Source of the DNA: Tachypleus tridentatus
Lineage: Eukaryota > Arthropoda > Merostomata > Xiphosura > Limulidae
Direction: 5' to 3'
NCBI RefSeq assembly: GCF_004210375.1
Contig: NC_134834.1
Span: 145,671,009 to 145,735,008, forward strand
Length of the DNA: 64,000 nt
Shown here: positions 26,683 to 63,916 of the stretch, one piece after another
How positions within the stretch are numbered: the first letter of the stretch is position 1
Layout: each line of letters opens with the position of its first letter
Made by a program: the position numbers and the translations under genes
Notes under the pieces: generated by a model
Database searches by the model: none
Seen by the model: only the letters and a program-made list of their open reading frames with translations
Told to the model about the DNA's origin: nothing

Positions 26683-29213
26683 GTTTGTTTGTTTTTAAAT
26701 TTCGCGTATAGCTACACGAGGGTTATTTGCGCTAGCCGTTCCTAAGTTTCACTGTGTCGGTATTTGGGTATTGATATTAAATACCCAGGAGGGTCAGGTA
26801 CATTAGACCTCTTCCAGCCGTTCCTAGTTTGACTGTGTGGGTATTTGGGTATTGATGTTGTTAAATACCCAGGAGGGTCAGGTACATTTGACCTCTTCCT
26901 CCCTCCCGAACGATTATAGCGTCTGTCTTTAGGGTTTTTTTTTGTTTTTTTTTAGAGCTTTGGGCCAGAGTAAAAGTATATCATACTCAGGTCGATTTCA
27001 GGGCTCAGTCCATGCATGGACAAACAAGAAGTTTTTGTGGTTTTTTTTCTTCATTTAATTTTTTTTTCATATATTTTTTTTTGAATTTTCATATATATAT
27101 ATATATTTTGTATTTTTCTCCTTTTTTTCTCGATTGAGAGAATGCTACTACTACTTGTAGTAACACAAACACACACACAGAAAAGAAAGTAATAATAACT
27201 ATTATTATTCAATACTTGAATAATAATTCAAAAAGAGAAAAAAATAAAATAAAATAATAAAAAAATAATGATTAAAAAAGAAAATAATAATTATAAAAAT
27301 AAAAAGAAACAAGGACTAAGTGTCTGGTGCATAGTGGCCAGCTTGTGTTACATTTCTTAAATATATGTTAAAAGGGAAGAGGTATTTAGGACCATTTACA
27401 TCATGTACGTGATATTTGTCGAGATCACACATTAAGTCATTTTTATGCCAATTCTTATTGAAATATTTTAGAGAATTATGCAAGAGTCTTTCAGCTATTG
27501 TATCTATGTTTGCATACTTGTGCATGAATGTGGTTGAGGTGCTACGTGGTACTTTATATGCTGAAGTTAGTACAGAATTGTGTATACGTTGAAGTTCCTG
27601 TACATGTGTGGGTGCTATGTTAATCCAGGCAGGTGATGCATATTCTATTGTTGGTCTAATGTACGTTTTGTAGATTTTAAGTATGTTGTCTGGTGATGTT
27701 CCTTGGATTTTATCTGAAAGACTTCTTGCATAGTTTGCTCTTTTCCAGATTCGTATCAGTACATTTTTAATATGTGGTAGCCACGTTAATTTTGAGTCAT
27801 AGATTAGACCTAGAAATTTAGCAGAAGTAGCAGTCAGTAAAAGTGATCCATTCATATAGAGTTTTGGTGGATCTTTTTTCAGCTTATACAGTCTGCTGAA
27901 TACTATGACTTGGGTTTTTGGAATATTAATTTTGATTCTGTATTTCTGGCAGTATTCTTCGATGTTATTTAGGACTGGTTGTAGGTTCGTTGCTGCTATT
28001 GACGGAGTGGGGGCACTTTTCCATACTGCTACCTCGTCAGCGAACTGTGATGCATAACCTAAATTTAGGTCCGACAGAGGCATATTACTCACGTACATGA
28101 TAAATAATATAGGGCTAACAATCCCTCCCTGCGGGACTCCTGCTTCGGGTGAAAAGGACCCTGAGTGGGCCCCATTTACATTTACTTTACACATTCTGTT
28201 ATCCAGGAAGTTGGACAGCCAGCGAATAGTTTCCTGGGGTAATGCCATTTCAAGCAATCTATGTCGTAAGCCGTTATGCCACACTGTGTCAAATGCTTTC
28301 TCAATGTCGAGAAAGCAAGCTACAGTGCATTCTTTTTTGTTGAAGCTGTCGGTAATTGATTCTGTAAGTCGAATCAGGTGGTCTGTAGTTTGACGGTTTT
28401 TTCGAAATCCGTTTTGAATTTCTGGTAATTTTGAATTTTCTTCTAAGTAAACTGACAGACGATTACTAATTATCCTCTCTAATACTTTGCCAATACAACT
28501 GGTTAAGCTAATCGGGCGGTAGTTGTTTGGTTTATTCGCTGGCTTTCCTTCTTTCTGGAACATTAATATTATTGCTTCCTTCCAAGAAACGGGGATATAT
28601 CCAGCTGATAATGAGAGATTAAATAACGCTGTTAGGTGTTCATATAATCTCCGAGTGCCTTGTTTTAGGAGGATAGCTTGAATACCATCTTCTCCAGGGG
28701 CTTTGTTTTTTGTGTTGTTAATAGCAGTTACTACTTCTGTTACAGTGATATGTTTTACCAGTTGATGAGTGCTCCAGTCTTTTGTTTTTTCTTGGTGTGT
28801 AATAGTGTTGACTGGAAATTTAGGTGTAAAATGCTTCTGTTTTGATCAATATAGTTTGTGACTGTATTATAAAAGTATCTGTTCATGTCTGGTTCATGAT
28901 GTGTTTTGAACGTGTTTTCTAGGTGTTTTTTAAATATCTCGGCTTTTTCTGTGTTAGTGTATGCTGTTTCTCCATCCAGTTCCAGTGGTGGATATACTGT
29001 GTTTGTTGTTCCTGTGTTTGTAAATCTTTTCAAATGTGTCCAGAATTGTTTAGGATCAGTTTTGTGATTTAGATAGGAACAGAAAGTGTCCCAGTTTTCT
29101 TGTTTCTGTTGTCTGATTAAGTTTCGTATTTTATTCCTTATTGTGTTTATCTGAGTTTTAAGTGTGGGGTTGCGATTTTGAATGTACTGTCTGCGGAGTA
29201 TACGTCTGTTTTT
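26683..29213 (-). mobile_element. Jockey-like LINE, 5'-truncated, RT domain nearly complete
   Basis: The minus-strand frame from 28563 to 27316 gives 415 residues with RT motifs in order: NNYRPISLTSCIGKVLER (13-30), CFLDIEKAFDTVW (83-95), AGVPQGGIVSP (141-151), then FADEVAVW (174-181) and the C-terminal thumb. The same frame stays open upstream to about 28850; a frame change there separates it from 28755-29033 and the part up to 29213 (INTIRNKIRNLIRQQKQ). The endonuclease and first ORF are missing, so the copy is 5'-truncated. The catalytic FADD is FADE (GAG at 28033-28035), expected to abolish activity. The 3' UTR contains two tandem units of 82-84 bp (26734-26815 and 26816-26899), each with a GGGTATT/AATACCC stem. 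It ends in a tail like that of the local SINE (26683-26760). Clade assignment is by eye. Confidence 0.85.
27090..27106. repeat. (TA)n microsatellite in the LINE 3' region
   Basis: Short alternating TA run in a very T-rich stretch (26930-27130), followed by an A-rich stretch (27180-27310). Both lie in the putative LINE 3' UTR. Confidence 0.8.
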
Positions 29214-32630: not shown

Positions 32631-34437
32631 ATGATCATTTCAAGACTTTTAAAGTTTTGCCGTGGAGTTCCTCAGTGTTTTACAAAACCTTGTGTATGGA
32701 ATGGTGAAAGAAATGCCAAGATGAGCACTCAAAGAGGTACACCCATTCTTTCAGAGACATGCTTGATAGGTTATTCTACTTAGAAATACACTCAAAATAT
32801 CTTTATTTAGCTGACTCTTTTTGACTATTGTCAAAGTGATATCTGAGTTAAAGAATAAATATTTTCATTAGTGCATCAACTGATGGTGTGGTGCTTGTTT
32901 TCATCACAGTAAAATTGTACAGGTCTGTTTTAAGATTTTTCATTGGGAAGTTGTTTTATAGACAAAGAAAATATAAGTAAGTTTGTGATTTGTGGTGGTG
33001 TTTGTTGTTTCAAAAAATAAAATTGGATTAAAATGCTCTTATCTGAAAATTAAATATTTTTGATTTAGACAAAATTCAGATATTTTTCATGGTATGTGTG
33101 AGTGTGTTTGTATTATGTAATGTCTTATGTTGATTTAAAAGTACTAATTTAAATGAAGCTATATATATACTTTGTTAAATTAAATAGTCTCCTTTTTTTT
33201 GGGGGGGGGGTTATTTGGTGAAACATCTCAGTTTGCTATGGAAAGCCTCATCAAAATTTGATGAAATGTGTGTCCAAACAACAACAACAAAAAAAAAAAC
33301 CTTATGGTCAGTTGCTTCAATTTCACTCATACCTTTTTAAGCAGCCTAAGGTAAGAATGTACATGTAGAAATGTTTTAAAACAAGTATGATTATTCATCA
33401 TGTTGTACCACATGTTATTATTCAATGAGAAACAAAAAGACCATACTAATTTTTCTTTGTTTTGGATATTTTATTTTTTGATGAATGAAGTTCTCATATT
33501 TGCTATTTGAATTTCAATGGAATCTTTATTGAAAGGATATTAAAAAAAATGAATATTTACTTTACAAAGTTAGTTCTCTCTTCAGGTGTTCATATATGGG
33601 AATTATAAATGGAAGAAAATCAAGTTCAAACGTAGGTCTGTTTTGTTTTTAAATCTGTATTGTGATTATTTCTGTGTCTGTTTTGATGTAACAAATTAAA
33701 AATTGTGCTTAAGTTACATACATAAAAATTATTTGAATTTTTTTTCTTAATTCTTTCCAGTTTCTAATGTCTTTGGTCAACATAATGAAAGCTATCTTGT
33801 GAAAGATAGGTTGCTGTTTTCAAGCATTATGTCAAACCTTCAGCTGTCAAAGACCAATTCCAGCAAAAGTGCCTTGGTTATGGACAGTGCTTTAACTTGT
33901 TGTGGTATTTCAGCTCTTGAGTCTAAAATAACCTGCTTAATTTTACCTGAGTACAGGAATCACAGATATGAGAACTTTTCTCTACCATCTATGAAAAACC
34001 AGGATGTAATTTTTTACCATGATCTCCCATTTCTGAAGATTATACCAAAGGAAGCCCCAACTGATAGAGCCTCAAATATGATAGAACCACCATTGTCACA
34101 TCAAGAGGTTGTAAAACGAGCAGCTGTGATGATTCAAATACGAAAAAGGAAAATGAAAAAGCACAAGTTGAAAAAGCTTCGCAAACGTATGCGCTTTGTT
34201 TGGGCAAGAGTTCGACAGAAGAGAGAGAAGCGTAAAGAGAAACAGTTTCAAGCAGAACTTCTGAGTCAAGTTCGTGAAGCAGAATCATTTAATGCTAAAG
34301 AATATGTTCATGACATTCTTCATCGAATCCAAAATAAACCGAAACCTGAAACCTATGAAGAAAAAAAGGAGAGAATTAGAGAGTTAATAAGAAAGAATCG
34401 TGGTGAGATTAACTACGTCAAGCCAAAATTTGATTAG
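32631..34437 (+). CDS. AURKAIP1: AURKAIP1 / mitochondrial small-subunit ribosomal protein mS38
   Basis: Exon 1 is 32631-32736 (ends AGAG before GTAC, phase 1); exon 2 is 33761-34437 after a TTCTTTCCAG acceptor. Together they encode 260 residues; human AURKAIP1 has 199. The start MIISRLLKFCRG is a basic, amphipathic mitochondrial-presequence type. The middle (about 50-150) is weakly conserved. The diagnostic part is the very basic segment at residues 162-195, RKRKMKKHKLKKLRKRMRF, matching RRRKMNHHKYRKLVKKTRF of human mS38, followed by a helical charged tail. The family is an rRNA-binding component of the mitochondrial ribosome small subunit; the human protein was first described as an Aurora-A-interacting protein. 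The ATG at 32631 is chosen because it gives the targeting peptide; TTTTTTAG at about 32611 may be a 5'-UTR splice acceptor. The intron contains a T8G10 run near 33200. Confidence 0.9.
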
Positions 34438-48322: not shown

Positions 48323-51300
48323 TCAAGGAATACCAACCACTTCTGGTGGTTTACAAACTCCCAATGGGGCTTTGTCGTTTTTCCCGGGCTTTTCCTTTTT
48401 GGCAGACGATTGTTCGAAATGACATACTAGGCCTTCTTTACACATACAGGACTCTTGACATCGCTGACCTAAGCCTAACTGGACCTTGTTGCAGGTTAGT
48501 TGTTTTCCCTTTTTGCTCTGGCAGCAAAACCCTAAAAGATATGTATATATTTAACCTTTAAAAAAATCATGTTATGCATTCAAACAATGGTAACAAACAT
48601 TAATAAATAGCAAACAAGAATAGTGTTTCTCAATCAGTGGTATAGATTGCATTATTGGAATCGTAAGGAAGTTAACAGATGCATTATTATATGCCAAACA
48701 TGTCAATTCGTTTGAATCTGTGGGGTACTAGAATATTAGATACGTAGAAATATATATTTTTAACCTTCATATACAAATTTATGTCTGTGTGCTTGTATTG
48801 GGAGATCGTCAAATACCATATACAAAAGTAAGTTGGCGCTGCTTAAGAAAAATAATTTGAAACCATTAAGAATGAAAAAATGCACCAAAATTGATTGTTA
48901 ATCATATTTAACAAAACAAAGGAGGAACAGCAATATTAGACTAAACGCGATAAATTTTAGGTACGGATATTTGCGTGCTTATTTTTTAATTTCGCGCAAA
49001 GCTACACGAGGGCAATCTGCGCTAGTCATCTCTCATTTGATAGTGTAAAACTACAGAGAAAGCAGCTGCTCATCACCGCCCACTGTCACCTCTTAGGCTC
49101 TAGTTTTACCCACGAATGGTGGGATGGACCGTACCATTATAATGCACTTACGGCTGAAAGGATGAGCATATTTGGTGTGACAGGGATTCGAACCCTCAGA
49201 TTACGAATCGATCGCTCTAACCACCTGGCCATGCCAGCCAAGCACAGAGATCTGATGAAGTATCCATTCATAGATTTTTATTGGTGGACATGGTTTGGAT
49301 TCCTAAATGAAACCTTTTTCAGAGATAAATATTGAGGCTGAAATGTCTTTTGACACAAGAACTATAAATACACAAAAACTTAAACAATAAATGATAACTT
49401 TCAATCATGGAAAATAGTTGTAATTGCATAAAATGGATTAAGTATTAAGACACCCGTATTCAAATCATACCACTATGTTTAAGTAAAAACCTTCTGCAGA
49501 GTCAAACGTTTTAATCTGTATTGTTTAATACAAACTGAAGTTTATGAAAAACGACCACATGAAATTTGACACAAGTTTTAATTTCAGCGTTTGTTGTTAT
49601 TTCTTCTTCTTTGTCTGGTGGGGTAGGAAGACCTTGCATCTTACATTCTGATGCATCATCGGCGATTCTTGGACAGGTATCATGTGGGAACACTTACCCC
49701 TTCGAATTCCTGTCACACCAAACATGCTCGCCCTTTTAGCCGTGAGGGCGTTATAATGTGATGGTCAATCCAACTATTCGTTGGTAAAAGAGTAGCCCAA
49801 GAGTTGGTCGTGGATGGTGATGACTAACTACCTTCCCTCTAGTCTTACACTGCTAAATTATGGATGACTAGTGGAGAAATTCTAAACAAACAAACACTTA
49901 CTCTAGCTAGCAGTTCATAATTTAGCAATGAAGGACTAGAAGGATGGTAGCTAGTCAACACTATCTCCTGCTAACTCTTGGACTAATCTTTTACATGACG
50001 AAGAATGTGATTGGCCGTTTCATTGCAATGCCCTCTCAGCTGAAAGGGGAATCATATTCGGCAATGGGAATTCGAACCCATAGATTGCGAATCAAGTACC
50101 CTTACCATCAGGCACCTTTTATATAATGTAAATAAATAGCTTAGTACGGACCTCTTAAGATTTAATTATAGCTGGACCTCTCTGTAACACTTCACAGACG
50201 ACTGAGCCCTCATAAACTTGTACCATACAGCGGCCCATTATATTTAGATTTATAACAGAAGTAAGATGGCCAGTCAGCTGTAGGTTACCATTCTCCATCC
50301 ATACTGAATGTCATTCTAATAATGCACCAACAGCTTAGAGTATGGGAAATATTTATCAGTATTACCGGAAATGATTCGTTTTCAAAATAAAAAAACTGAA
50401 TTACTGTTTAAAGTTGTATATATTAGAATACTTAAAATAAGAACTGCACAAGAGAACGTGATGAAACAATTTGTTTAAAAAATGATAATGGACACAATGT
50501 GTAAGGAGTGTTCTCTACGTAAGCTTACAAAAACCAAATACAGCACTAGCTACAAAGAAAGTGGAATGGAACAAAACTTAGTAAAAGAAGTATCTAATAC
50601 AGACGAACTCGTATACCAACGAGGGCACATCATCTATCAGGTTTAGTGTCTATTAATAAGCCTCACATATAGGATAACATAAATATAAAAATAGAGGCAT
50701 ATACACGTGCTGAATCTCAGATCGAGGTCCAATCTATCCAATGTTGTTGAAACCAGTTATGATAAAATGATTCTTAAAGATATTGATATAAATTTAAATT
50801 AATATTTTGTGTTACCCTTATTTCACAGTATGAATATACGTTTAAAAAAAACATTTATGGAATTATAATGTTAGTTCTAAATAATAAGTTATAATTTATT
50901 GGTCCTACGGTTTTTCATTAATAGCCTTTTTATTAGATTTCTTATATCCCTCAACTCGTTTCGCAATAGGCTGTGGACAGCGAACAATAGTTTATGGAAG
51001 GGATTTTGTGGTCTACGAATGTTAATATTAAGTGCATCTCCTAAGTGAGGCTTATGCCTGAATAAAAAATGTAAATTGTGCAAACAAGTTATGCGAGTCT
51101 TATCCGAATGATTTATATATTTTTAAATAAAACTTTCTACTGCTTACAACCAGCATAATTTTATTTTTTATTCTGGTTGTTAGACGTAAACTAAAGAAAT
51201 GTCATGGCTGATTTTCAGATTTTGTTTTATGCTCTTTTCTCTTTAGATGTTAAAATTAAAAATTGTGTTGTGAGTTATATTTCACATATTTTAATTTAAT

Positions 51301-54300
51301 ACTTTACTAGAGGGAGCTGCTAACATGCTGATAACATTAGATTTAAAGTTTATAAAATAGTCCTTGAATGATTAGAATGTTTTTGAATGTTGATAATCGA
51401 AAGACTGAAATATTCAGAAACAAAGAGTCATTATGAGTATGAGAATCAGTGAAACGTTGAGCCAGTTTCAATTCCTTCAGTGATTGAGAAGTTAGTGAAG
51501 AATTCAGTATATTCAGTTACTCACTCGATTAGCGGTAAAGTTGTAGAAGAAAATGTATTTATAATTTAGTCGTACATCATAGTACTGTTAGCCAGTAAAT
51601 TTCTGTCAAAAATAAAAAAGGTATTTGCGAACTTAGGCCTACAACTGTGTACAAGTTATAATAGCCTGCGACAAACTTCAAAAGACGTAAAATAATCTGT
51701 TATCATTACGCGGAGCAGACTTTACACCATTATCAGCAAATAATTTAAAATAAAGTGACCAACGAAAAAACATGTTACAACACACATTAGCCCATAAAAC
51801 GGAAATAAAGAGGCAGAAGGTTTTGTAGCAATTTTGGTTTTTAGACCAAGAAATGTTGACGTCATTTGATTTGTAAATGAACTGATTTTCTTTGCTTATC
51901 ATTAATTTTATTATTTGAAAGACCACAAACGATACTATATTTTCTAAACCTAAAACAGTATCGATAATAAAGCTCGCTAGAACACATGATAACGGAAAAT
52001 GCTGCGATATTTATAAAGCAAGCAGCGTGTTCAAGTGTGGAATGTACCAACACTCCACATTTTTAGGGGAGCACACAGCACAAGATTAATTACCTGGTTG
52101 ACAGTCAGTACTAGAAGTGCAAGTTCCTACTGGTTTTTTTTTCTCTGTGTTCTTTGTTTCACCTACGGGTTCTACTTGTATTTTAGTTGGATCTTCATTT
52201 TCTTTCCATACAGTCTCTTTAGTAGCTTCAATAGGTTCAACTTTCTTTCCCCCTCCTTCTTGAATCCCGGGAACTGCTACGGGATCTTCCTTCTCGGACT
52301 TCTTCTCTTCTCCCTCTGGCTGGTACTTTGTTTTCTTTGTAACCTTTTCAGGCTGTGAGATCGTACAGAAATTCTTTAAGAAGGACTTACGGATATCTAG
52401 CTAAATTACCATGAGGCCTAGTTCAACAGCTAGTTCAAAGTGATGAGAACACACGTAAGATTTATTAAGAATATTGTGCTATTCAGAATTTTAAAAAAGG
52501 TATAACGAAGAGGTGCATAACGCTAGATCGACTAAAAAGTGCTTTTCAAGTTGTGGTGAAGCGAATGGTGGGTCTACTAAAAAGAGCTTTTTAAGTTCTG
52601 ACGAAGCGAATGGTACACGACGCTAGGTCTACGAAAAATCGCTTTTGACTGGTTTAACCTGTTCGTTCTTCGACACCAGAAGGCGGGATTAATGTGAGCT
52701 ATCTTGTTTGATACACAAATCTTCTGTAATTTACAAATTTATCGCAGAAACGGACACTAAAATATTGGTATAATCTAAAGGGCTGCTAATCTCTCATTGT
52801 TACATAAAGTTTGGAGACAACTTGAATAAGTAGCGAAATAAATTTCTTTACAAATATACACTCGTTTACAAGTATAGGACGTTTCGATATCAACTTGTTT
52901 GAAAAGCAGGTTCTTTCTCATCAAACGTGAGGCTTAATCTTATTAGATTTATTTCCTTATTTGTTGTTGGTGTTTTTAATCAAATTTCCTTTTGATACAA
53001 AACGGGTACCATATTTTTTATTAATTTTTAGTAGAAACAGAGCTAAAATCAGGATTTTTTCTTAAATAAAGTAGTTTCGAGACAGTTATTACAATATTAA
53101 AGAACTAATTCGCGTTCGGGCTTGTGAAAAACATATCCCGCAGAAAACAAAACTGTACGTGAATTATTACTCAGAATGACGTCACGCACATATTTTCATT
53201 TCACAGTTGTTGTTGTTTTTTTTACAATTCGTGGCTAATAGAATGAATAGCAATGCTCTGTATTTAATGGATTTTTATAATGGTTTTTAAAATATTTATT
53301 TTTGCATTGAATATTATTTTTATTATTTTAAATAACCCTACAATTACTTTGAATTACACCTATAGTCCTTTCTGCCTAATGATCTAATCGGTTAATGGTT
53401 ATTTTGCATAATATTATATTATCAAGTTGTCGTAAACCAAATAAATGTATATATATTTATGAAATTGTAATATACTCTTTAAATTTGCTGAAATATTTTA
53501 TGTGGAAAGTTTCCAAGGTTTTACGCAATAATGATAAATAAATTATGTTACATAAAAACAGAAAACAACAAAAAACCAACTGAAGATGTTTCCTCCAAGT
53601 GTTCCAATATTACATGGAATGATATCAAAAATCGCATTAATTAATTAGTAGAGATTTGAAAAGTAGTAAAATACAATGTTTGAAGATGTTAAAAGTTAAT
53701 ACTGACCTTAGTTGTTGCTTCTTTGGTTTTCTTTGGCGGTTTAACTGAAAAAGAGTAATGGACAAAAGTCAGGTTATAAAGCTGTCAGTGGTAAATCATG
53801 GAAATACGAGAGTTAAGGATTCGGAAAGTAGAAAACTGAAGGTTAAAAAATTCAGGTTCAATCAAAAAATATCACACGTTAACTGAAGAAATTTTTAATG
53901 CGTTTCAATTCCTGATTTATTCTTGAAAAGCTAAGGCAATTGCTCATAATTCGAATCGTAAAAGCTTATATTGAGTTTATGGAAATGAATTTATTTTTAA
54001 TAATGTTTGAAACTTTTTTGCACAGAATGATCTGGATGTTTTAATGGATGCTATATATTTCAAACGAAGACCATAAACGTGCTTCGGAAATGGTAAACAC
54101 ATATACATCAAGACTACAGGGAATCGAAGTCCGCCACGAGGTATAGATCAACTCACAGAAAGCACCAATAACACGTCGACTTTATGTTTAATTGGATCGA
54201 TGCGGATCGAGTGTTATAATTTAGATGGTTAATAGTACAGTGCCCGGAGGATTGAAAACAAACCCAGCGTGTGTACAGTAAATCAGATAAAATACTGTAA

Positions 54301-57300
54301 CGACACCCAAGACAAAACACGAAGCTTGGTTACAATAATTGTCCATTCTCCCCTACTTCAGCTGCCCATTAGACTTCGCAGAAATGTTTTCGGGAGGAGG
54401 GGGAAGGCAAGGCGGTGTGAAATTGTGAAGCAAATGTGCAATCGTGTACACATGTTGTGCGAATAAAAACAGCATTATGTTTTTGTTTTTTTTATTCATG
54501 GAGCATTCCACCTCGCGGTGCCGATTCTAATGTAACCTCATGAAGGTGAGAAATAAATAACAGCTTTATTAAAATCATATACACTCCTCTGAGCCAGCTT
54601 GGATATGTTCAGAACACCACGTACATCGGTGTCATTTATTCGTATTCCTCACGCATCTACATCCAAAGCTTTCTCTCACTATCCATTTCGCTTTTAGAAT
54701 CCAATTAAAGTTTATTTAAAATTATTGTGCGTTTTGCAAATATGTATTGATTAAAACAGTTTTAAAAAATGAGGATTTTCACCTCAATTTTACACCAACG
54801 AAATAACAACAAATGATTAAAATTATTCCTAACGTGTAGGCCCGGCATGGCCTAGCGTGTTAAGGTATGCGATTCGTAATCTGAAGGTCGCGGGTTCGCA
54901 TCCCGGTCGCGCCAAACATGCTCGCCCTTTCAACCGTGGGGGCGTTATAATGTTACGGTCAATCCCACTATTCGTTGGTTAAAAAGTAGCCCAAGAGTTG
55001 GCGGTGGGTGGTGATGACTAGCTGCCTTCCCTCTAGTCTTACACTGCTAAATTAGGGACGGCTAGCACAGATAGCCCTCGAGTAGCTTTGTGGGAAATTC
55101 AAAAACAAACAAACAATCCTAACGTGTAAGCAAGCAATGTTGTAGCTACCCCTAGAGCAGAGATCACGATGAGTTGGGGAGAGGAGAGGCTGGGATACCC
55201 CATGAAAGCTAGACAATGTAGCAAATTTATTCTGTGCTAAGAAACAGGGGGCGGACGAAAAGTGCCCCCCCTGAAAATGTTGTTAATTTGTTATATATTT
55301 TATTAGAAAACAGAAAAGTATCTAAAAGTATATGTTTTTAGAACGCACTCGAAGATCTCTTGAAATATGATTTTAAATCATAATTCTAACACTGGCTTAA
55401 GTAAATACCGGAACTTTTCATGGTTTTAGTTACATTTTCTCATAAAAAGTGTCGTACACCTTCTGTAGTGTTTTAGATCTTTTTATTCCAGTTAGCCTAC
55501 AATATGATCAAACAAGTTTCTCTGCAATAAACCAACGTAGAAATGAAACTCAAAATCACATAAACCAGTTTCACAAGTTAATATTTAGTCAGCCTTTCCT
55601 TGGATTTCAGTACTGCTTTACATCGACATGGCATGCTTTTAATGAGTTTGTACAGATGTCCCTGAGTGATTGACTGCTATCCTTCTTTGAGTACTTCAAA
55701 AAGTTTGGTTTCCCATCTCTCGTTAACCGTTTTAACACAGCCCACAAATTTATAAATGGATTTATATCAGGTGACTGACCTGGCCATTCTATAATATCAA
55801 TTCTCCTATTCCTAAGACATCTTTTAACGCCTCTACAACTGCAGAGAAACTTGTTTGATCATTTTGTATGTTAATTAAAATAAGGTTTGTTTGTTTTTTT
55901 GAATTTCGTGCAAAGCTACTCGAGGGCTATCTGCGCTAGTCGTTCCTAATTTAGCAGTGTAAGACTAGAGGGAAGGTAGTTAGTCATCACCATCCACGAC
56001 CAACTCTTGGGCTACTCTTTTACCAACGAATAGTGGGATTAACCGTAACATTATAACGCCCTCACGGCTGAAAAGGCGAGCATGTTTGGTGCGAGGGGGA
56101 TTCGAACCCGCGCCCCTCAGCTTACAAGTCAAGTGTCTTAACCATCTGGCCATGTCGGGCCGAAGCAGAATAAGAAAATCTAAACTACAGCATGTGCACA
56201 ACACTTATTATGAGAAAATGTAACTAAAATCATAAAAAGTTCAGGTATTTACTAAAGTCAGCGTTAAACTTAGGATTTGAGAGCATATTTGAACAGATCT
56301 CGTCGAGTGCGTTCTAAAAACATATACTTTTACATATCCAATAATATCCAATTATTATTATTATTGTTATCCAATAATAGATATAACAAAATAACAACAT
56401 TTTCAAGGGGGTGTCATTTTTTTGTTTACCCTTGTATGTATATTTGTGGAGGGGGCAAGAAATAGTAGTTACGATACTGCGGGTAGGAAAACTTGACATT
56501 AAGCTCTTGAATATCAACATTAATGATATCAACATTAACCATTCATATTTCCATAGTTGTACTACCTATTACACTTATCACATTTCGAAACAAAAACAAT
56601 AAAAATCTTTTATTTTTTAACTGGAAGAGAAAAAGACTATTTTGCTACCCTACTCGTGAGTAATGAAACTAATTAATACGTAAAAAGACAAGAACTAAAT
56701 TATATTTTCCATAGTTAAAAACAAGAGGAAATCCTCAATAGCCGTGGCACTTGAAATTCCTTTTGGCAGAATCAGGGTAAATTAATTTATGAGACCTTCC
56801 TCTCACTTTACTTTTGCGCCACCAATACCAAAGGTGGGGCAGGCGTATGCCCGATTCGATTTGATTCCTCCTCAAAAACAAATGGCTTTTCAACAATATT
56901 TTATGCAGTCGAAAAATTTTCTGTTGAGAAGTTATTTCTTTGAAAGTTGAACTTAAACTTCGAAACACAACTATTTTAAATATACATAGGAAATAATAAT
57001 AGTAATTAATTTGCATCTTAGTGACTAATTGTTATCAAACAATGTTTCCCATAGCTAGCTGAAACAATAGTTATTATCTACATAATGTTTACCGAAGCAA
57101 GCTAAAACAATAGTTACTATCTACATAATGTTTTCCGTAGCTAGCTAACACAATAGTTATTATCTACACAAAGAATTAATTACATGTGAAGTTAATTGAC
57201 ACGACATTACCAAGAGTACAAACAAAAAGTAATGTTTAGGAGGAAGCGATATTAAAAAATAATAATAATAAATACCCGAATCTTAGAAGAAAAGCTTGAT

Positions 57301-60300
57301 TCTATAATTAAAATATAACAATGTTATGTGTAACAGAAAGCAGTATTTGAACATACTATTGTCAGCTTAAAAAAACCTATGTCACTTATCAAAACACATG
57401 AAACAGGCTACAGGAAGTATAAAAAAAATTAAGTCTTTTGTAAAGATGATAAATTTCAAGAAAGTTCAACAACAATAATTAGGCTTAGAAAGAGAAGTTG
57501 AAACATATAGAGAAAGTTCAGTAATAATAGGTTTAGAAAAGGAAGTTTCAAGAATCATGACTATAGAAAATAAAGTAATTAGCAGAAACTGTTTGAACTT
57601 AAATAATGACGTATAATGTCACATTATATACGGAACTGTTAACTTTATATATATAATAAGTTTAAACTAAAAGGAGGTAAAACCAGTGTCGTGACATCCT
57701 GTAAAATTTCTAACCCTACAATCAGTAGCAATAGGATTGTCTGAAATTCCCACAAAACTTATGTACAAAGCTTTATTATATTATTTATTAATTAGATTTA
57801 TTATGTATGAAATTCTAGCTCAAATAAATATAAATATTTAGCTTGTGGATTGAAGTTACCTTCCATTGGAAATCCTTATAATGTTTAGAAGATATGTTGG
57901 CTATGTTTAAAGCCTCCCAACTTGGGAGTCTTAAAACTCGTATTACTAAATTAGAAACGGGCCATTGTGTATATTTGCGCATACAACAAACAAACTTTAT
58001 TTTAAATTTAAAAAAAAATTGAAGAGAAGAAGTCCCACACAAAATAGCTACAAATTTGAAAAAAAGAAAAGAAAGGTAACTCTGGTTTAGTTTGGTTTTC
58101 ATTTCGCACCAAGTTTTTCGAGGGCTCTTTGCGCTAACCCGTCCCTAATTTAGCAAAGCATGGGCTACTCTTTTACAAATGAATAATTGGAATGACAGTA
58201 ATATTATAACGTCCCAACAGCTGAAAGGGCAAGCTTGTTTGATGATGGCATTCTAAACAGCGATCCTCAGATTGCGAATCTGATCACCAGGCCATGCCAG
58301 GTAAATAAAAGGTAACACAGGTAACATTAAATAATAGATAATGCCTCACTTAACGGTACCTACAAACAACACCTGTAAGCTTCAAATACTGTTGTAGATT
58401 TCCTGTTCGTTGAAAAATATAAAACTACCTACTATTCTAATTAAAGAACGTAAGCTGTTTACAATCATAACTAAAAAACGTAAACTGTCTATAATCCTAA
58501 CTAAAAAACTGTAAACTGTCCGCAATCCTAACTAAAGAACTTAAACTGTCCACAATCCTAACTGAAGAACGTCTCGTGACCATTGTTGAAATATTCTTTG
58601 ATCGAGAATTTAAACTTGAAAAATTGTTAAGTAATTACCTTAATGATCAACGTTGTTTTAGTGACATCAGTTGTTAAGCAATTACCTTGTTGACCAACGT
58701 TGTTTCAATAACATCAGTTGCTGGTCGCATTCTCAATGAAACAAAATATAAAACCTTCAAAAATTCGTCCTATGTGAAGGAATGGTAATTTCCATGTGTC
58801 ACTGTCAGAGCAACTTGGGTCTACTGACGCTGGACATTCATAAAATACTTGAAACTATTAAAGAAAACCAAAGAAGCGTCATGTAAAGATGAGTGAACTC
58901 AAAAGCTTCTATCGTTTCAGCATCGAAGATTCTTCTTCTCTCGATTTATTGAGATTGCTGACGATGATGAACGGACTAGCATCGGTTCTCTTTATCGTAT
59001 TAGAACTCACAAATCCGTAGTAGTAGCTTTTCTATCTCAGATAACAAACACCTGTATTTTTATGGTTTGAGAATCCAAAATACTTTAGGTATTACAAAGT
59101 AAGGTTTAAAGGAACGTAAAAAAAGTCTGATAAGTTTGATTATGTATATAAGCTGTTACATGTATGGTTTAACGTTTTCGTACACCTTGTTAACCGAGGA
59201 TTTTAATGTTTTAAAATTAAACACTCGTTCTTTAAATAAATTTGAAAAAAATCTAACATAACATTTCCAATGGACCTTTTGAAGCTGGAATGAAACCGAT
59301 AGAGCACAACGATAAATCTGCAATAAAAGGGAGCTTTAAAACAGTGACAAAGCATACGTTGCCCAACATATCTACTAACAGAGTGACAGACATTTCATAT
59401 TCTAATGCAACAAGCGATGCACGACGTCATATCTAATTCAAAACATATTTTAAAGTTGTGATGGACCAAACAGGACAAAACACAAACTGTGTAAAAAAAA
59501 AAAAAGAGCTTTTCAAGTTCTGACGAAGCGAATGGTGCACAACACTAGATCTACTAAAAAGTTTTTTAAGTTGTGATGGAACAAACGATACATAACATTA
59601 AACTATCGATATTTCGACCACCAACCTGTTTAATTACATATTTTAATCATTATATAACATTCTTCAAATGTTTCCTTTCGTTGTAATGTATAATATCGTG
59701 CAGAGTTTGTCGATAACATAGTCACCTCGTACCGTTGACGTCACTTTTCCCTGCTTCACGATGTGGTAACAGAGATGTCGGAGGCAAATTAAAAGGGGGA
59801 AAGGTTTATTTGACCGAGGGAACTTGCGCCAATGACGCGTCTATTACGGCCGGGGGTCCATAATTCCCTAGAAACGCTTGGGTTTTGGATTAAATTTTAT
59901 GTTCTCCTACTATTCTGGAGATTAATTTTCCTAATTTTGGTGCATTTTTAATGAGACGGATTAAAAAGTGGAAGTCCGTCATAGTGTATACTGTATAACT
60001 TTTTTAAACATGTTTAGTGAATCTTCACGAAAATGTTCAAGCTTTTAGTAAACGTTAGGTAACAAGTTTCTCGTAGATGGAAAATAAATTAGAGTTTTTA
60101 ATTAATTACTCATACTAAAAATATCTTCGTGAATATATGGAGTAAGAATATCGCCTGCTTCACGTGACTGCATATATACGACCAAATAGTAATAATTTTT
60201 ATTATTTGTACACTTGTATTTAAAACAAAGGGTATTTTTTGGGCACCCTATGTTTAGTGTTTCTAATAAACATGACGAATATCATATGAAAGGCAACACT

Positions 60301-63300
60301 GAACTGTACACTTCGTTCAATACGCCATTCTTACTGTGATATCACGTGATAGTGGCTGTCCGCAAGGGGGAAGGTGGATCTCCTCCCATGGAAGATGAGA
60401 AAGATTTATTTCTTTATTCATTTGCTTTGTTTTATCTGACTTGTGGGCCGTTCATGAAATACTTTCTGATAACCTCACATAAAGAAAATCGATCCATGAT
60501 AATCCCCAACAATATTCACCAGGGACCCAATTGAAAAAACGAAGCATCCAACAAAAATCGAACAAAATGTTTGCTATTGTACTGCTACAAAAGGGACTTC
60601 TATCCCATTAGTGTGTACAGAAAGTTTCTTACCATTCACGTGCTATACGTTAAGAACATCATGAACGTTTAAAATATCATCCCACACATAATGATTATTC
60701 TAACGTGGAACAGCAGACAGGTGGTGCAATTTCTGCAGTTCATTTTAAAGACTCGAATCTGTTCTAATACTAATGGTGAGGCGATACGAGTATCGAATCC
60801 TAAAGACGAGATACGACAATTTTCTTCACGAAATTTGGCATGCTTTCAGTAAATATTATAAATCTTTTGTACAGAGGAAAAACAGAATTTCCAGTGAATT
60901 ACTTTTGTTAAAACTTAATTATTCCATAAAGATAGATGAGTATCTAATACTACATGTTGTATTAATTTATTTTATCAAAACATTTCAAAACAAATTAACA
61001 ATAATAAAATAGACTGATATTAACTTTTTCATTTTACTTCTCTTGACAGTTGCCTTTAGTTAATAAAACCTGATAATTTGAAAAACATCAAAAACAGTGC
61101 AAACTGTGAAGTATGTAAGACAATGTTAGTGATATAGTTAATAAATTACAGACAAGAATGTCCAACTTTGTAATAAACCGGTGGTGAAACTTCTATATCT
61201 AGTTGCGTATCGTATCGATTACCATGACGATAATACGTACTGCCAAATAAGACTCAGATTATTGCGCGCGCACTTCATTTTAACCAAAGTGAACAAAGAG
61301 CGGATGTAAATATATTTCAGAAGATATTTTGTACAATAATATATTAAAAGCTTATCAGAATTTTTAAAAAGGTCTAATATTAGGTCGTATTATAACATTT
61401 GTTTTTTTTTTTTTTTAATTTCGCACAAAGCTACTCCATGGCTATCTGTGCTAGCCGTCCCTAATTTAGCGGTGTAAGACTAGAGGGAAGGCAGCTAGTC
61501 ATCACCACCCACCGCCAACTCTTGGGCTACTCTTTTACCAACGAATAGTGGGATTGATCGACACATTATGACGCCCCCACGGCTGAAAGGGCGAGCGTGT
61601 TTGGTGCGACTTGGATTCAAGCCTGCGATCCTCAGATTACCAGTCAAACGTCTTAACCCACCTGGCCATGCCGGGCCCTATTTACTGGAAGTATTACGTA
61701 AAGTTTGGTCCTGACTAAATCAAGAAAAATACAGAAGTGACACAGGTCGTATTTAATGAAGGCTTAACTAACGTTAGGCTTAAGGTAAGCGGAGTTACGG
61801 TTTTCCATGTCTGTGATTAAAACTTCTTTCTATTAAAAAGTACTGTTTTAATAATTATGCTAATTTGATTACAAATGTTTTGCGAGTCTCTGCCAATAAA
61901 AGATATATATATATAGATTTAATTCTAAAGAGATGCAAGTGAACCACACTCTTCTGTTACCAAACCATACCTTTCGTTACGTGAATTTTAATGAAAATAA
62001 TTAACCGTCTGTGTTACCTGCCACCTAGCAGCGAACGTTTGAAGTTTGATCCTGTATTTTAGTTTATCGGTTGACATTCTGAGTGGAATAGTAATTAAAT
62101 ACTTCACAACACTAGTCGGATTAGCGACAGAAAGTAAATAATGTTCATGTATTTGGTAAATTATGCTGGTGGGTGATAGTTTAAAAACGTGGGTGAACAT
62201 AACTGACAAACACCATGATGTATGTATATATATGAAGTAAGAGAGTGGATGAATCGTTTTATCCGTCGTAATTTACAATAGATCTGAAGCGTAGATATGG
62301 GTCCTTCCCCGTGAATACCGAGGCATATTGATCACATATTATCTTTCAGTTTTTATGTGCAATAAACTCCTTTTGTATCCCTTAATAAAAAAATAAAACT
62401 TCCATAAACCCTATTACATTTGATATATGATTTTATTTATTTTAATGTTCATTTTATAAAAAAAAAATTAGATCAATTTCAGCCTTCAATATAAATACAA
62501 TGAAGTAAAACACAGTTCTTCCAGTTTCAACAATAACTCACCACAGGTATCGAAACTCGGTTTGCGGCGACATAACTTTGTAGGCTTGCCACTGTTCCAC
62601 TGGAAGGAGTACATAGAAGGTGTAGCTAACTTTTAGCATTTGGTGTTGTAATTCCTCTCCCAGTTATCCTGTCATTTGTGCTCGTTATGGGATTAAACCT
62701 TGAATTTTATCATTATAAACTCTCAATATTACTATTGAGTTGTTGAGAGGTATATACAAGCATGGGTCTGATGCCTTGAAACCAAACTGTTACATGCAAT
62801 TTGAACTGATTAAATATGAAAGGCTTAATCGAGTTGCTAGCTATAAAGTCGGTTCACAATATTAAATTAAAGAAACAACAACAATAAAACATGTGTTTGA
62901 AACATTGCAAAATGAAGAAAGATTTTAATGTGGGAAATATTGCTAATAATTTCATTCCACAGTTCCTTAAGTTACGTTATAGATCTAGAACAACGAATGT
63001 TACATTTACGATCACCATTAAATTTACAATAGATACAAATGTTTTGGGCCTGGCATGACCAAGCGTGTTAAGGCGTGCGACTCGTAATCTGAGGGTCGTG
63101 GGTTCGCATCCCCGTCGCGCTAAACATGCTCGCCCTTTCAGCCGTGGGGGGCGTTATAATGTGACGGTCAATCCCACTATTCGTTGATAAAAGAGTAGTT
63201 CAAGAGTTGGCGGTGGGTGGTGATGACTAGCTGCCTTCCCTCTAGTCTTACACTGCTAAATTAGGGACGACTAGCACAGATTGCCCTCGAGTAGCTTTGT

Positions 63301-63916
63301 GCGAAATTCAAAACAAACAAACAATACAAATGTTTTTGTTGCGCGTGCTTATTTTTAGAGCAAAGCCACATTGTGCTATCTGCTTTGTCCACCGCGGGGA
63401 ATCAAACCCCAAATTGTAGACTTCTTGCCATCCTACCAGGATACATTTGCTGTGAACTTTTTAAACCATAACAACAACCAAAAACACCCACCTTCTGGTG
63501 GCGATGACTTTAATAATAATTTAAATACGATGTAATCAGGTTCGCGGTTCGTCTCTTAATTGAACCAAGTATTGTGTAATAAATTCCTTGGAGGGAAAGT
63601 TTTGTTAAAAACTGTTCATAAAGCTATGTCTAAAATTGATATATTCCAAATCAAAAACAACATATTAGAGATTTAAACAACATACGATACTTTGTTTAAA
63701 AAAAAACTCGAATAAAAAGAGAGGAATGTTAGAGGTATGTATCTTACCACATCTGGTAAAGGACTCAGAATAGACTTGAAGACCAAACTTTGGCATGAAC
63801 TGTTACAACTCAGTTTAACAAAATCCAGTCTTACCTTGTTCTTCTTTTTCTTTAACAATGTCCTTAGGGGTCTTATTGTTTTTCATGCCTTTCCAGTACT
63901 TCTTTTCATATTGGGC
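48323..63916 (-). CDS. Dickkopf/prokineticin-like ten-cysteine protein with Lys/Glu-rich stalk (5' end outside window)
   Basis: Four exons with matching phases: 63916-63835 (phase 0 to 1), 53744-53707, 52352-52094 (ends phase 1) and 48531-48323 with TGA. They give 195 C-terminal residues; the start and any signal peptide lie beyond 64000. Residues 1-115 are hydrophilic and rich in Lys and Glu (AQYEKKYWKGMKNNKTPKD, KPPKKTKEATTKPEKVTKKT). Residues 116-190 have ten Cys at 118, 124, 129, 130, 140, 151, 155, 157, 163 and 186: CTSSTDCQPGFCC, CNKVQLGLGQRC, ESCMCKEGLVC, GVC. This matches the colipase fold of Dickkopf C-terminal domains (CxxSSDCxxGLCC, CxxVLxEGQxC, RCxCxxGLxC) and prokineticins or astakines. 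The Dickkopf loop between Cys 6 and 7, about 14 residues in DKK1, is only three residues here, while Cys 9-10 are spaced by a Lys-rich insert. A secreted ligand-type role is inferred. No truncation was seen within the exons. Further exons inside the 10-kb intron cannot be excluded. Confidence 0.8.
48980..49239 (-). mobile_element. tRNA-derived SINE (Thr-SINE), diverged
   Basis: Full-length minus-strand copy in the last intron of the Dickkopf-like gene, from TTTTTTAATTTCGCGCAAAG (left) to CCACCTGGCCATGCCAGCC (right). Confidence 0.88.
49698..49892 (+). mobile_element. 5'-truncated tRNA-derived SINE with 9-bp target duplication
   Basis: Plus-strand copy that starts inside the B-box (TTCGAATTCCTGTCACACC) and lacks the upstream part of the tRNA head. 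AACACTTAC occurs at both edges (49689-49697 and 49893-49901), so the copy was truncated when it integrated. Confidence 0.9.
49902..50115 (-). mobile_element. Old tRNA-derived SINE (Thr-SINE) abutting the previous copy
   Basis: Minus-strand copy, strongly diverged, without the 3' tail; TAATTTAGCAATG at the left, a head relic GCGAATCAAGTACCCTTACC at the right. The neighbouring younger SINE integrated at or next to its edge. Confidence 0.78.
50116..52093. other. Intron of the Dickkopf-like gene, unassigned
   Basis: No exon of matching phase and no named repeat was recognised. The open frame 51083-50889 (minus) resembles nothing I know. Confidence 0.4.
52515..52650 (+). repeat. Tandem units of a dispersed repeat (about 45-60 bp period)
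   Basis: Two and a half units share GACGAAGCGAATGGT, GACGCTAGGTCTAC and AAAAAGTGCTTTTCAAGTT. The same units occur at 59495-59580. They lie between exons 2 and 3 of the Dickkopf-like gene. Confidence 0.75.
54839..55116 (+). mobile_element. tRNA-derived SINE (Thr-SINE), young, 12-bp target duplication
   Basis: Complete plus-strand copy close to consensus. TCCTAACGTGTA flanks it at 54827-54838 and 55117-55128. The head GGCCCGGCATGGCCTAGCGT resembles a tRNA with anticodon-loop TTCGTAA. Confidence 0.95.
55240..56438 (-). mobile_element. Tc1-family element with long (about 200 bp) inverted repeats
   Basis: Left arm 55240-55450 and right arm 56205-56438 are imperfect reverse complements over about 200 bp. 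Matching blocks are TTTTTAGAACGCACTCGA (left, 55335) with TCGAGTGCGTTCTAAAAA (right), and TTTTAGTTACATTTTCTCAT (left, 55425) with ATGAGAAAATGTAACTAAAA. The minus strand between them (about 55865-55600) reads RRIDIIEWPGQSPDINPFIN, LWAVLKR, then CTNSLKACHVDVK, the C-terminal part of a Tc1-type transposase with SPD and NLW motifs. The N-terminal half is missing, and a SINE occupies the centre. TA dinucleotides lie at 55238-55239 and 56439-56440. Long arms are known from Minos- and Sleeping Beauty-type elements. Confidence 0.8.
55885..56161 (-). mobile_element. tRNA-derived SINE nested in the long-TIR Tc1 element
   Basis: Full-length minus-strand copy from TTTGTTTGTTTTTTTGAATT (left) to CATCTGGCCATGTCGGGCC (right). 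It lies in the internal part of the Tc1 element and so is younger than it. Confidence 0.93.
57040..57170. repeat. Three tandem units of 43-44 bp
   Basis: Units begin near 57041, 57084 and 57127 with AATGTTT; they share GTAGCTAGCTAAAACAATAG and TTATTATCTACA. Located in the large intron of the Dickkopf-like gene. Confidence 0.9.
58089..58301 (-). mobile_element. Old tRNA-derived SINE (Thr-SINE) with internal deletion
   Basis: Minus-strand copy lacking the block between TTTAGCA and GGGCTACTC. AAAGGTAAC near both edges (58072-58080 and 58308-58316) may be its target duplication. Confidence 0.82.
58433..58573. repeat. Tandem array, 4-5 units of about 31 bp
   Basis: Unit AATCCTAACTAAAGAACGTA followed by AACTGTCCAC. 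The units vary by substitutions and one-base indels. Confidence 0.92.
59340..59640 (+). repeat. Dispersed repeat related to 52515-52650
   Basis: Contains GACGAAGCGAATGGTGCAC, CTAGATCTACTAAAAAG and more diverged variants (GTTGTGATGGACCAAAC near 59454, GTTGTGATGGAACAAACG near 59571), ending near CTATCGATATTTCGACCACC. It appears to be a tandem-structured element of unknown class. Confidence 0.65.
59736..59743. promoter_or_regulatory. Consensus CRE octamer in a CpG-richer island
   Basis: TGACGTCA, the palindromic CREB/ATF site, at the left of an unusually GC- and CpG-rich, repeat-free stretch (59720-59890, with GCGCCAATGACGCGTC and TTACGGCCGGGGGTCC) inside a large AT-rich intron. A role as enhancer or internal promoter is only a suggestion. 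Confidence 0.35.
61400..61678 (-). mobile_element. tRNA-derived SINE (Thr-SINE) with long poly-T (A-tail) edge
   Basis: Full-length minus-strand copy close to consensus. The left edge is a run of 16 T (an A-tail on the SINE strand) rather than the usual TTTG repeats; the right edge is the head, CACCTGGCCATGCCGGGCCC. Confidence 0.93.
63046..63323 (+). mobile_element. tRNA-derived SINE (Thr-SINE), young, 13-bp target duplication
   Basis: Complete plus-strand copy. ATACAAATGTTTT flanks it at 63033-63045 and 63324-63336. The head has the loop CTCGTAA and B-box GTGGGTTCGCATCCC. Confidence 0.95.
63351..63440 (-). mobile_element. tRNA-derived SINE, second family
   Basis: Minus-strand copy: TTTAGAGCAAAGCCACATTG, then GCTATCTGC, then the complement of a tRNA-like B-box (GGGGAATCAAACCCC), then TAGACTTCTTGCC. 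Related to 32461-32575. It starts about 15 bp after the target duplication of the preceding SINE. Confidence 0.65.

What the first reader, a model, noticed from the sequence alone, without database searches (positions are those of the whole stretch)
48323..63916. Stalked Dickkopf/prokineticin-like ten-cysteine protein with a nearly absent Cys6-Cys7 loop
Four exons in consistent phase encode a Lys/Glu-rich stalk plus a colipase-fold module. The cysteine order fits Dickkopf C-terminal domains and prokineticins or astakines, but the loop between Cys 6 and Cys 7, which in DKK1 is long and lies near the LRP5/6-binding surface, is cut to three residues, and a Lys-rich insert sits between Cys 9 and 10. 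Neither a classical Dickkopf (two Cys-rich domains) nor a short astakine has this layout, so it may be a chelicerate-specific secreted ligand. The cysteines and exons are seen; the fold is from family knowledge; the function is inference.
Basis: partly seen in the sequence, partly recalled or inferred. Interest (0 to 1): 0.72.

Follow-up and report, generated by a model that had tools for sequence, protein, structure and literature searches.

The report
Draxin-like secreted ligand in horseshoe crab
The window holds the last exons of a horseshoe-crab gene whose cysteine-rich tail most resembles Draxin, a nerve-guidance protein that published papers describe as absent from invertebrates, so that kind of guidance cue may be older than thought, although its function here is untested.

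Summary
The four exons are real: canonical splice sites, one frame, 195 aa ending in a ten-cysteine domain with a three-residue Cys6-Cys7 loop. The genome is a horseshoe crab's (Coagulin). Draxin is the top Pfam family for 3 of 3 paralogous domains (30.0, 20.4, 18.0 bits; only the window's passes the cut-off of 27), the best PDB sequence match and Foldseek's first match for exon D. Spacings of 10 and 3 residues around Cys6 match Draxin, not Dickkopf; this genome's Dickkopf and vertebrate DKK1/2 domains list no Draxin match. Relatives lie on C6 and C8; a C13 pseudogene lacks the C/D intron exactly where predicted. Another exon lies outside the window. Against: no signal peptide found, no netrin-binding peptide, three of five alignable DCC hot-spot residues changed, and alignment scores and tree tests do not exclude Dickkopf. 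Best reading: a Draxin-type ligand in an arthropod, contrary to published statements. I do not file it as a Draxin proper.

The parts
63835..63916 (-). Exon A: stalk, AQYEKKYWKGM..., starts in phase 0, leaves one base over at its end
   Evidence: Splice sites and frame; conserved in both C8 copies (QYEKKYWKDVKANETPK, E 8e-7 in a small local database); not found on C6. The upstream neighbour exon Z (C10:145746333-145746423 by my arithmetic, outside the window) ends in phase 0
53707..53744 (-). Exon B: 38 nt, stalk (VKPPKKTKEATTK)
   Evidence: Splice sites and frame only; no paralogue found, the least certain exon
52094..52352 (-). Exon C: Lys/Glu-rich stalk plus Cys1 and Cys2
   Evidence: matching exon C on C6 and C8 with the same phases
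48532..52093 (-). Intron between Cys2 and Cys3, after the first base of a codon
   Evidence: Same intron position on C6 and C8; absent in the C13 pseudogene
48323..48531 (-). Exon D: Cys3 to Cys10, C-terminus and TGA stop
   Evidence: Cys domain 65% and 56% identical to the C6 and C8 domains; dN far below dS; Foldseek first match Draxin 5z5k_B

Best explanation
This is the 3' part of a horseshoe-crab gene for a secreted Draxin-type ligand: a long, charged, probably disordered stalk ending in a compact ten-cysteine domain of two finger sub-domains. Shown here: gene structure, paralogues, selection on exon D, and closest profile and fold similarity to the Draxin C-terminal domain. Inferred: the disulphides, secretion (signal-peptide exon not found), retention by the charged stalk in the extracellular matrix, and binding of the Cys domain to a cell-surface receptor. 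The likeliest receptor is of the DCC/neogenin/Frazzled class, which the genome encodes; second is LRP5/6. The likeliest action is to modulate axon guidance or Wnt signalling. The netrin-tethering half of vertebrate Draxin's mechanism is probably absent.
For: Draxin is the top Pfam family for 3 of 3 paralogous domains: 30.0 bits (cut-off 27), 20.4 and 18.0. Draxin 5z5k_B is the best PDB sequence match (E 2.3e-5; next, a DKK4 chain, 0.14). Cys5-Cys6 of 10 and Cys6-Cys7 of 3 equal rat Draxin; human DKK1 has 9 and 16, this genome's own DKK 9 and 14. Controls: horseshoe-crab DKK, human DKK1 and DKK2 list no Draxin match at E up to 10 (HMMER's filters drop most matches above about 0.1), nor do 8 of 8 Cys-fixed shuffles. 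Foldseek's first of 26 matches for the exon D model is Draxin in the DCC-Draxin complex, probability 0.99. With the loop removed, DKKs separate from Draxin plus the three window-type domains in 80% of 200 bootstraps. Neogenin_C gives 12 matches, 12 of 12 over the cut-off, on C2, C7, C9, C11 and C13. Of the DCC hot spot, Met302 is kept in 2 of 3 domains and Arg282 is Lys in 3 of 3.
Against: 2 of 3 paralogous domains score below the Pfam cut-off; the full 195 aa only just passes (27.2 against 27); the genome search with the Draxin model found only the window's exon D, below cut-off (17.4 bits, E 3.86, no control genome rang); a profile of the three domains weakens the PDB match to E 5.7e-4. Alignment against Cys-fixed shuffles does not favour Draxin over this genome's DKK (z, Draxin then DKK: window 5.0 and 5.1; C6 3.9 and 6.6; C8 3.3 and 3.2) and human DKK1 gives 4.0, 3.4 and 3.6. 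The tree test rejects neither alternative (AU 0.249 and 0.118). The netrin-binding 22-mer is not recognisable (402, 1572 and 1868 of 2000 shuffles score as high). Residues aligned to His270, Leu281 and Phe298 are replaced in 3 of 3. Foldseek's E is 0.095 and TM 0.46, from a model without Cys1 and Cys2; the five models' mean pLDDT ranged from 73.3 to 47.6. No signal peptide was found and there are no expression data.
Confidence: 0.57

Rival explanations
1. A chelicerate branch of the Dickkopf family that shortened the Cys6-Cys7 loop independently of Draxin (and perhaps lost the N-terminal Cys domain); it would act on LRP5/6 or on a new receptor.
For: Shuffle z-scores to this genome's own DKK equal or exceed those to Draxin for two of three domains; AU does not reject grouping with DKK; Dickkopf_N and DKK C-subdomain models give sub-threshold matches.
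Against: Two spacings and the Cys-Met-Cys motif (2 of 3 domains) agree with Draxin and not DKK; DKK domains list no Draxin match; Cys1 to Cys9 of the genome's DKK lie in one open frame, whereas this family has an intron between Cys2 and Cys3.
Confidence: 0.28
2. A secreted defence or haemocyte cytokine of astakine type, or another arthropod colipase-fold peptide carried on a stalk.
For: Same general fold class; Foldseek also lists colipase (rank 2) and MIT1 (rank 8). The C6 domain has a negligible match to Pfam Toxin_12 (E 6.6).
Against: No Prokineticin, MIT-like or colipase family listed at E up to 10 for 3 of 3 domains, while DKK domains do list such families below cut-off.
Confidence: 0.1
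3. Not a functional gene, or exons wrongly joined.
For: Signal peptide not found; exon B has no paralogue; no RNA data; a C13 copy with stops and a frame-shifted C8 copy exist.
Against: Exons C and D and their phases at three loci, exon A at two, purifying selection on exon D, and a pseudogene that confirms the C/D splice.
Confidence: 0.05

Closest known systems
Draxin (neucrin), Pfam PF15550, PDB 5z5k
   Same: Long cysteine-free stalk then a C-terminal ten-cysteine domain; Cys5-Cys6 of 10, Cys6-Cys7 of 3, Cys-Met-Cys in 2 of 3 domains; best Pfam, PDB and Foldseek match
   Different: Cys4-Cys5 of 9 instead of 6; no recognisable netrin-binding 22-mer; three of five alignable DCC hot-spot residues changed; arthropod, whereas Draxin is described as absent from invertebrates
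Dickkopf 1/2/4 C-terminal domain
   Same: Same superfamily and cysteine order; Draxin and DKK share one disulphide pattern (PMC5871715, passage)
   Different: Loop of 14-16 between Cys6 and Cys7 and 9 between Cys5 and Cys6; a separate Dickkopf gene sits on C12 of this genome
Prokineticin/AVIT, astakine and MIT-like peptides
   Same: Colipase-type ten-cysteine fold (PMC6832493, passage)
   Different: No family match for the three domains; short proteins without a stalk (recalled)

Membership tests
Draxin | Pfam PF15550 score above the curated cut-off | tested here: inconclusive
   Window domain 30.0 against 27 met; C6 20.4 and C8 18.0 not met; six-frame genome search 17.4, not met
Draxin | Ten-cysteine C-terminal domain with Draxin spacing | tested here: met
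   5-4-0-9-10-3-1-5 against 5-4-0-6-10-3-1-5 over Cys1-Cys9; only Cys4-Cys5 differs; Cys9-Cys10 of Draxin was not seen
Draxin | Netrin-1-binding 22-residue peptide just upstream of the domain | tested here: not met
   No similarity above shuffles in 3 of 3 stalks
Draxin | DCC Ig4 hot-spot residues | tested here: not met
   270, 281 and 298 changed in 3 of 3; Met302 kept in 2 of 3; Arg282 is Lys in 3 of 3; Arg322 could not be aligned
Draxin | Signal peptide and secretion | tested here: inconclusive
   No shared signal-peptide exon in the upstream sequence held
Draxin | Binding to netrin, DCC or LRP; axon-guidance function | not testable with these tools
   Needs binding and expression assays
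Dickkopf | DKK Pfam models above cut-off | tested here: not met
   Window domain: Dickkopf_N 18.0 against 25, C-subdomain 2 14.9 against 27. The genome's true DKK C-terminal fragment also stays below its cut-off (23.4 against 27)
Dickkopf | Two Cys-rich domains | tested here: inconclusive
   No cysteine in the 147 stalk residues examined, but first exon(s) unseen
Dickkopf | Long Cys6-Cys7 loop | tested here: not met
   3 residues against 14 and 16
Prokineticin/astakine | Pfam PF06607 | tested here: not met
   No match for the domains; the genome search also found none, but no positive control rang

The most novel reading that the evidence does not exclude
A true orthologue of Draxin exists in an arthropod, so Draxin was present in the bilaterian ancestor and was lost from flies and worms. 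Its receptor-binding Cys domain came first, and the netrin-binding peptide is a later vertebrate addition.
Probability: 0.33. Interest if true: 0.78.

Novelty: new variant of a known kind. Interest (0 to 1): 0.55.

Why it matters
A 2021 review by the group that identified Draxin and a 2023 study of the fly Frazzled interactome both state that Draxin is absent from invertebrates (passages seen). A Draxin-type ligand in a horseshoe crab would suggest that the family predates the protostome-deuterostome split. It would give arthropods a candidate extra ligand for DCC/Frazzled, and make it testable which part of Draxin's link between netrin and DCC is ancestral.

Tried and rejected
Rejected: a tick salivary protein (ixodegrin, astakine; literature listings only), since window GC is near 33% and Coagulin points to a horseshoe crab. 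Rejected: astakine/prokineticin. Tried without result: a signal-peptide exon in 22.8 kb (C8) and 38.6 kb (C10) upstream of exon Z. One search listed 3 and 9 candidates, which I compared by eye only, and crashed before C6; the scored comparison (shorter stretches) had 3 candidates on C10, 0 on C8 and 1 on C6, with no convincing pair. Netrin 22-mer search. NCBIfam gave only weak bacterial families. Window synteny: the one neighbour gene identified is single copy and does not help.

Literature limits: 'draxin' with 'invertebrate' is in 23 papers, 20 listed, of which I read passages of two. 'draxin-like' is in 0 papers and 'draxin' with 'chelicerat' in 0. A six-term search asking for any two terms found 3,273 papers; none of the 15 listed held Draxin. 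'draxin' with 'evolution', 'gene family' and 'Dickkopf' is in 3 papers, one read in passages. No paper was read whole.

Dropped rows: protein 4 was mistyped by me (its first letters come from no sequence) and is ignored. In one search the tree with the loop included did not finish; only the loop-removed tree is used. One search crashed and was rerun.

Full report
Observation. They chain in one frame to 195 aa and a TGA; the other two frames hold many stops. The domain has ten cysteines with spacing 5-4-0-9-10-3-1-5-22, so the three-residue Cys6-Cys7 loop is real.

Organism. The window lies in contig C10 of a 2.17 Gb, 205-contig assembly. The Coagulin family gives 19 matches, 19 of 19 over its cut-off. 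Coagulogen is, from general knowledge, specific to horseshoe crabs. The species is not identified.

A gene family. A protein search of the genome gives 6 matches: the window, two near-identical copies on C6, two on C8, and one on C13. The C6 pair is 98% identical over 13.6 kb and the C8 pair about 99% over three pieces totalling 26 of the 30 kb compared, so these pairs may be recent duplicates or unmerged haplotypes. I count three distinct genes. One C8 copy has a frame shift inside the Cys exon. The C13 copy has no intron between Cys2 and Cys3, the C and D coding sequence being fused exactly at the predicted junction, and carries stops: a retro-pseudogene and an independent record of that splice. 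Its match to exon A, 0.7 kb upstream, is weak (E 0.91). Exon D shows dN 0.23-0.24 and dS 1.9-3.2 (near saturation; 36-38 synonymous sites) among the three genes: old duplicates under purifying selection. Three rounds of genome duplication are described for horseshoe crabs (PMC7815833, passages including the abstract); that these paralogues date from them is inference.

Beyond the window. Exon A is conserved on C8 but was not found on C6; exon B was found at neither. A further upstream exon, Z, is conserved on C10, C8 and C6 (RHEAGHQ[ED]K core; E about 1e-6 to 4e-11 in a small local database), with the same acceptor phase in 3 of 3 and a phase-0 end that fits exon A. On C10 it is at 145746333-145746423 (my arithmetic), 11.3 kb outside the window. 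A genome-wide search with Z plus A gives 8 matches up to E 10: the two C10 exons (1.9e-11, 8.4e-10), four on C8 (0.044 twice, 0.62 twice), one on C6 (4.45) and one with a stop on C19 (5.24), so genome-wide the paralogous exons are weak matches.

What it is. Pfam: Draxin 30.0 bits for the window domain (cut-off 27), 27.2 for the 195 aa, 20.4 for C6 and 18.0 for C8. Draxin is top in 3 of 3, ahead of Dickkopf_N at 18.0, 14.3 and 16.7. PDB sequences: Draxin 5z5k_B E 2.3e-5, then two DKK4 chains at 0.14 and 0.19 and DKK1 at 8.4 and 9.1; with a three-sequence profile, Draxin 5.7e-4 against DKK4 0.096. Controls: this genome's own Dickkopf C-terminal fragment (C12, L045), human DKK1 and DKK2 list no Draxin match; they list DKK families, Prokineticin and, for DKK1/2, Colipase_C, the non-DKK ones below cut-off. 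The horseshoe-crab fragment also stays below the DKK cut-off (23.4 against 27). 7 of 8 Cys-fixed shuffles list nothing and 1 lists an unrelated family. Spacing: Cys5-Cys6 is 10 and Cys6-Cys7 is 3 in the three genes and in rat Draxin, against 9 and 14-16 in the DKKs. Fold: exon D alone, single-sequence AlphaFold, best of five models pLDDT 73.3, pTM 0.52. Foldseek's first of 26 matches is Draxin in the DCC complex (probability 0.99, E 0.095, TM 0.46), then colipase (0.75); 0 of 26 reach E 0.001.

Results that weaken this. The genome search with the Draxin model found only the window's exon D, at 17.4 bits, below cut-off. Alignment against Cys-fixed shuffles puts the three domains about as close to this genome's Dickkopf as to Draxin, closer for C6. 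A 46-column tree without the loop separates DKKs from Draxin plus this family in 80% of 200 bootstraps, but AU does not reject the two alternatives (0.249, 0.118). Since the netrin peptide and most DCC contacts fail, I call it Draxin-like, not a Draxin.

Mechanism. In vertebrate Draxin the Cys domain binds DCC Ig4, with His270, Leu281, Phe298, Met302, Arg282 and Arg322 named as contacts, and a 22-residue peptide upstream binds netrin-1 EGF-3 (PMC5871715, passages). Draxin also represses Wnt signalling through LRP (PMC6829301, passages). In the window, C6 and C8 domains the residues aligned to 270, 281 and 298 are S/T/N, S/S/S and Q/E/R; 282 is Lys in all three; 302 is Met, Thr, Met. Arg322 could not be aligned. 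The netrin peptide is not detectable. DCC/neogenin genes are present. So a receptor-binding, stalk-borne ligand is the likely mode, with the DCC class first and LRP second; netrin tethering in the vertebrate way is unlikely. The stalk (147 residues on C10 with exon Z, 42% Lys/Arg/Glu/Asp, no cysteine) resembles the disordered Draxin region in kind, not in sequence.

Status in print. A 2021 review and a 2023 paper say Draxin is not in invertebrates (passages). Searches of the open library for 'draxin-like' and for Draxin with 'chelicerat' found none. This does not cover database annotations or subscription papers, so a predicted horseshoe-crab record may already carry the name.

Confidence moved from 0.58 to 0.57, the novel case from 0.35 to 0.33 and interest from 0.56 to 0.55, because exon A proved absent from C6 and the genome-wide Draxin search was negative outside the window.

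Noticed in passing
33754-34434 (+): Single-copy ORF with a COX24_C domain (28.7 bits, cut-off 23): an AURKAIP1/mS38-like mitochondrial gene; the AURKAIP1 name is recalled.
   Followed up: partly
27319-28845 (-): 509-aa ORF with a reverse transcriptase domain (RVT_1, 124 bits), probably a non-LTR retroelement.
   Followed up: no
C6 at 159.49 and 159.82 Mb, C8 at 97.68 and 98.03 Mb of the same genome (L008-L011): Two near-identical pairs about 330-345 kb apart on the same contigs; possible unmerged haplotypes in the assembly.
   Followed up: partly
L045 (C12:117809300-117809650): A Dickkopf gene: Dickkopf_N over cut-off at C12:117812804 and, 3 kb away, a C-terminal domain with a 14-residue Cys6-Cys7 loop.
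   Followed up: yes
54833-54982, 55980-56204, 61495-61677, 63059-63187: A short repeated element whose translations share a motif like KHARPFSRGGVIM, on both strands.
   Followed up: no
C6 second copy (L027), about 16 kb upstream of its Cys exon: His-rich stretch (KHWNHKHHGKK) similar to part of the C13 pseudogene region; origin unclear.
   Followed up: no
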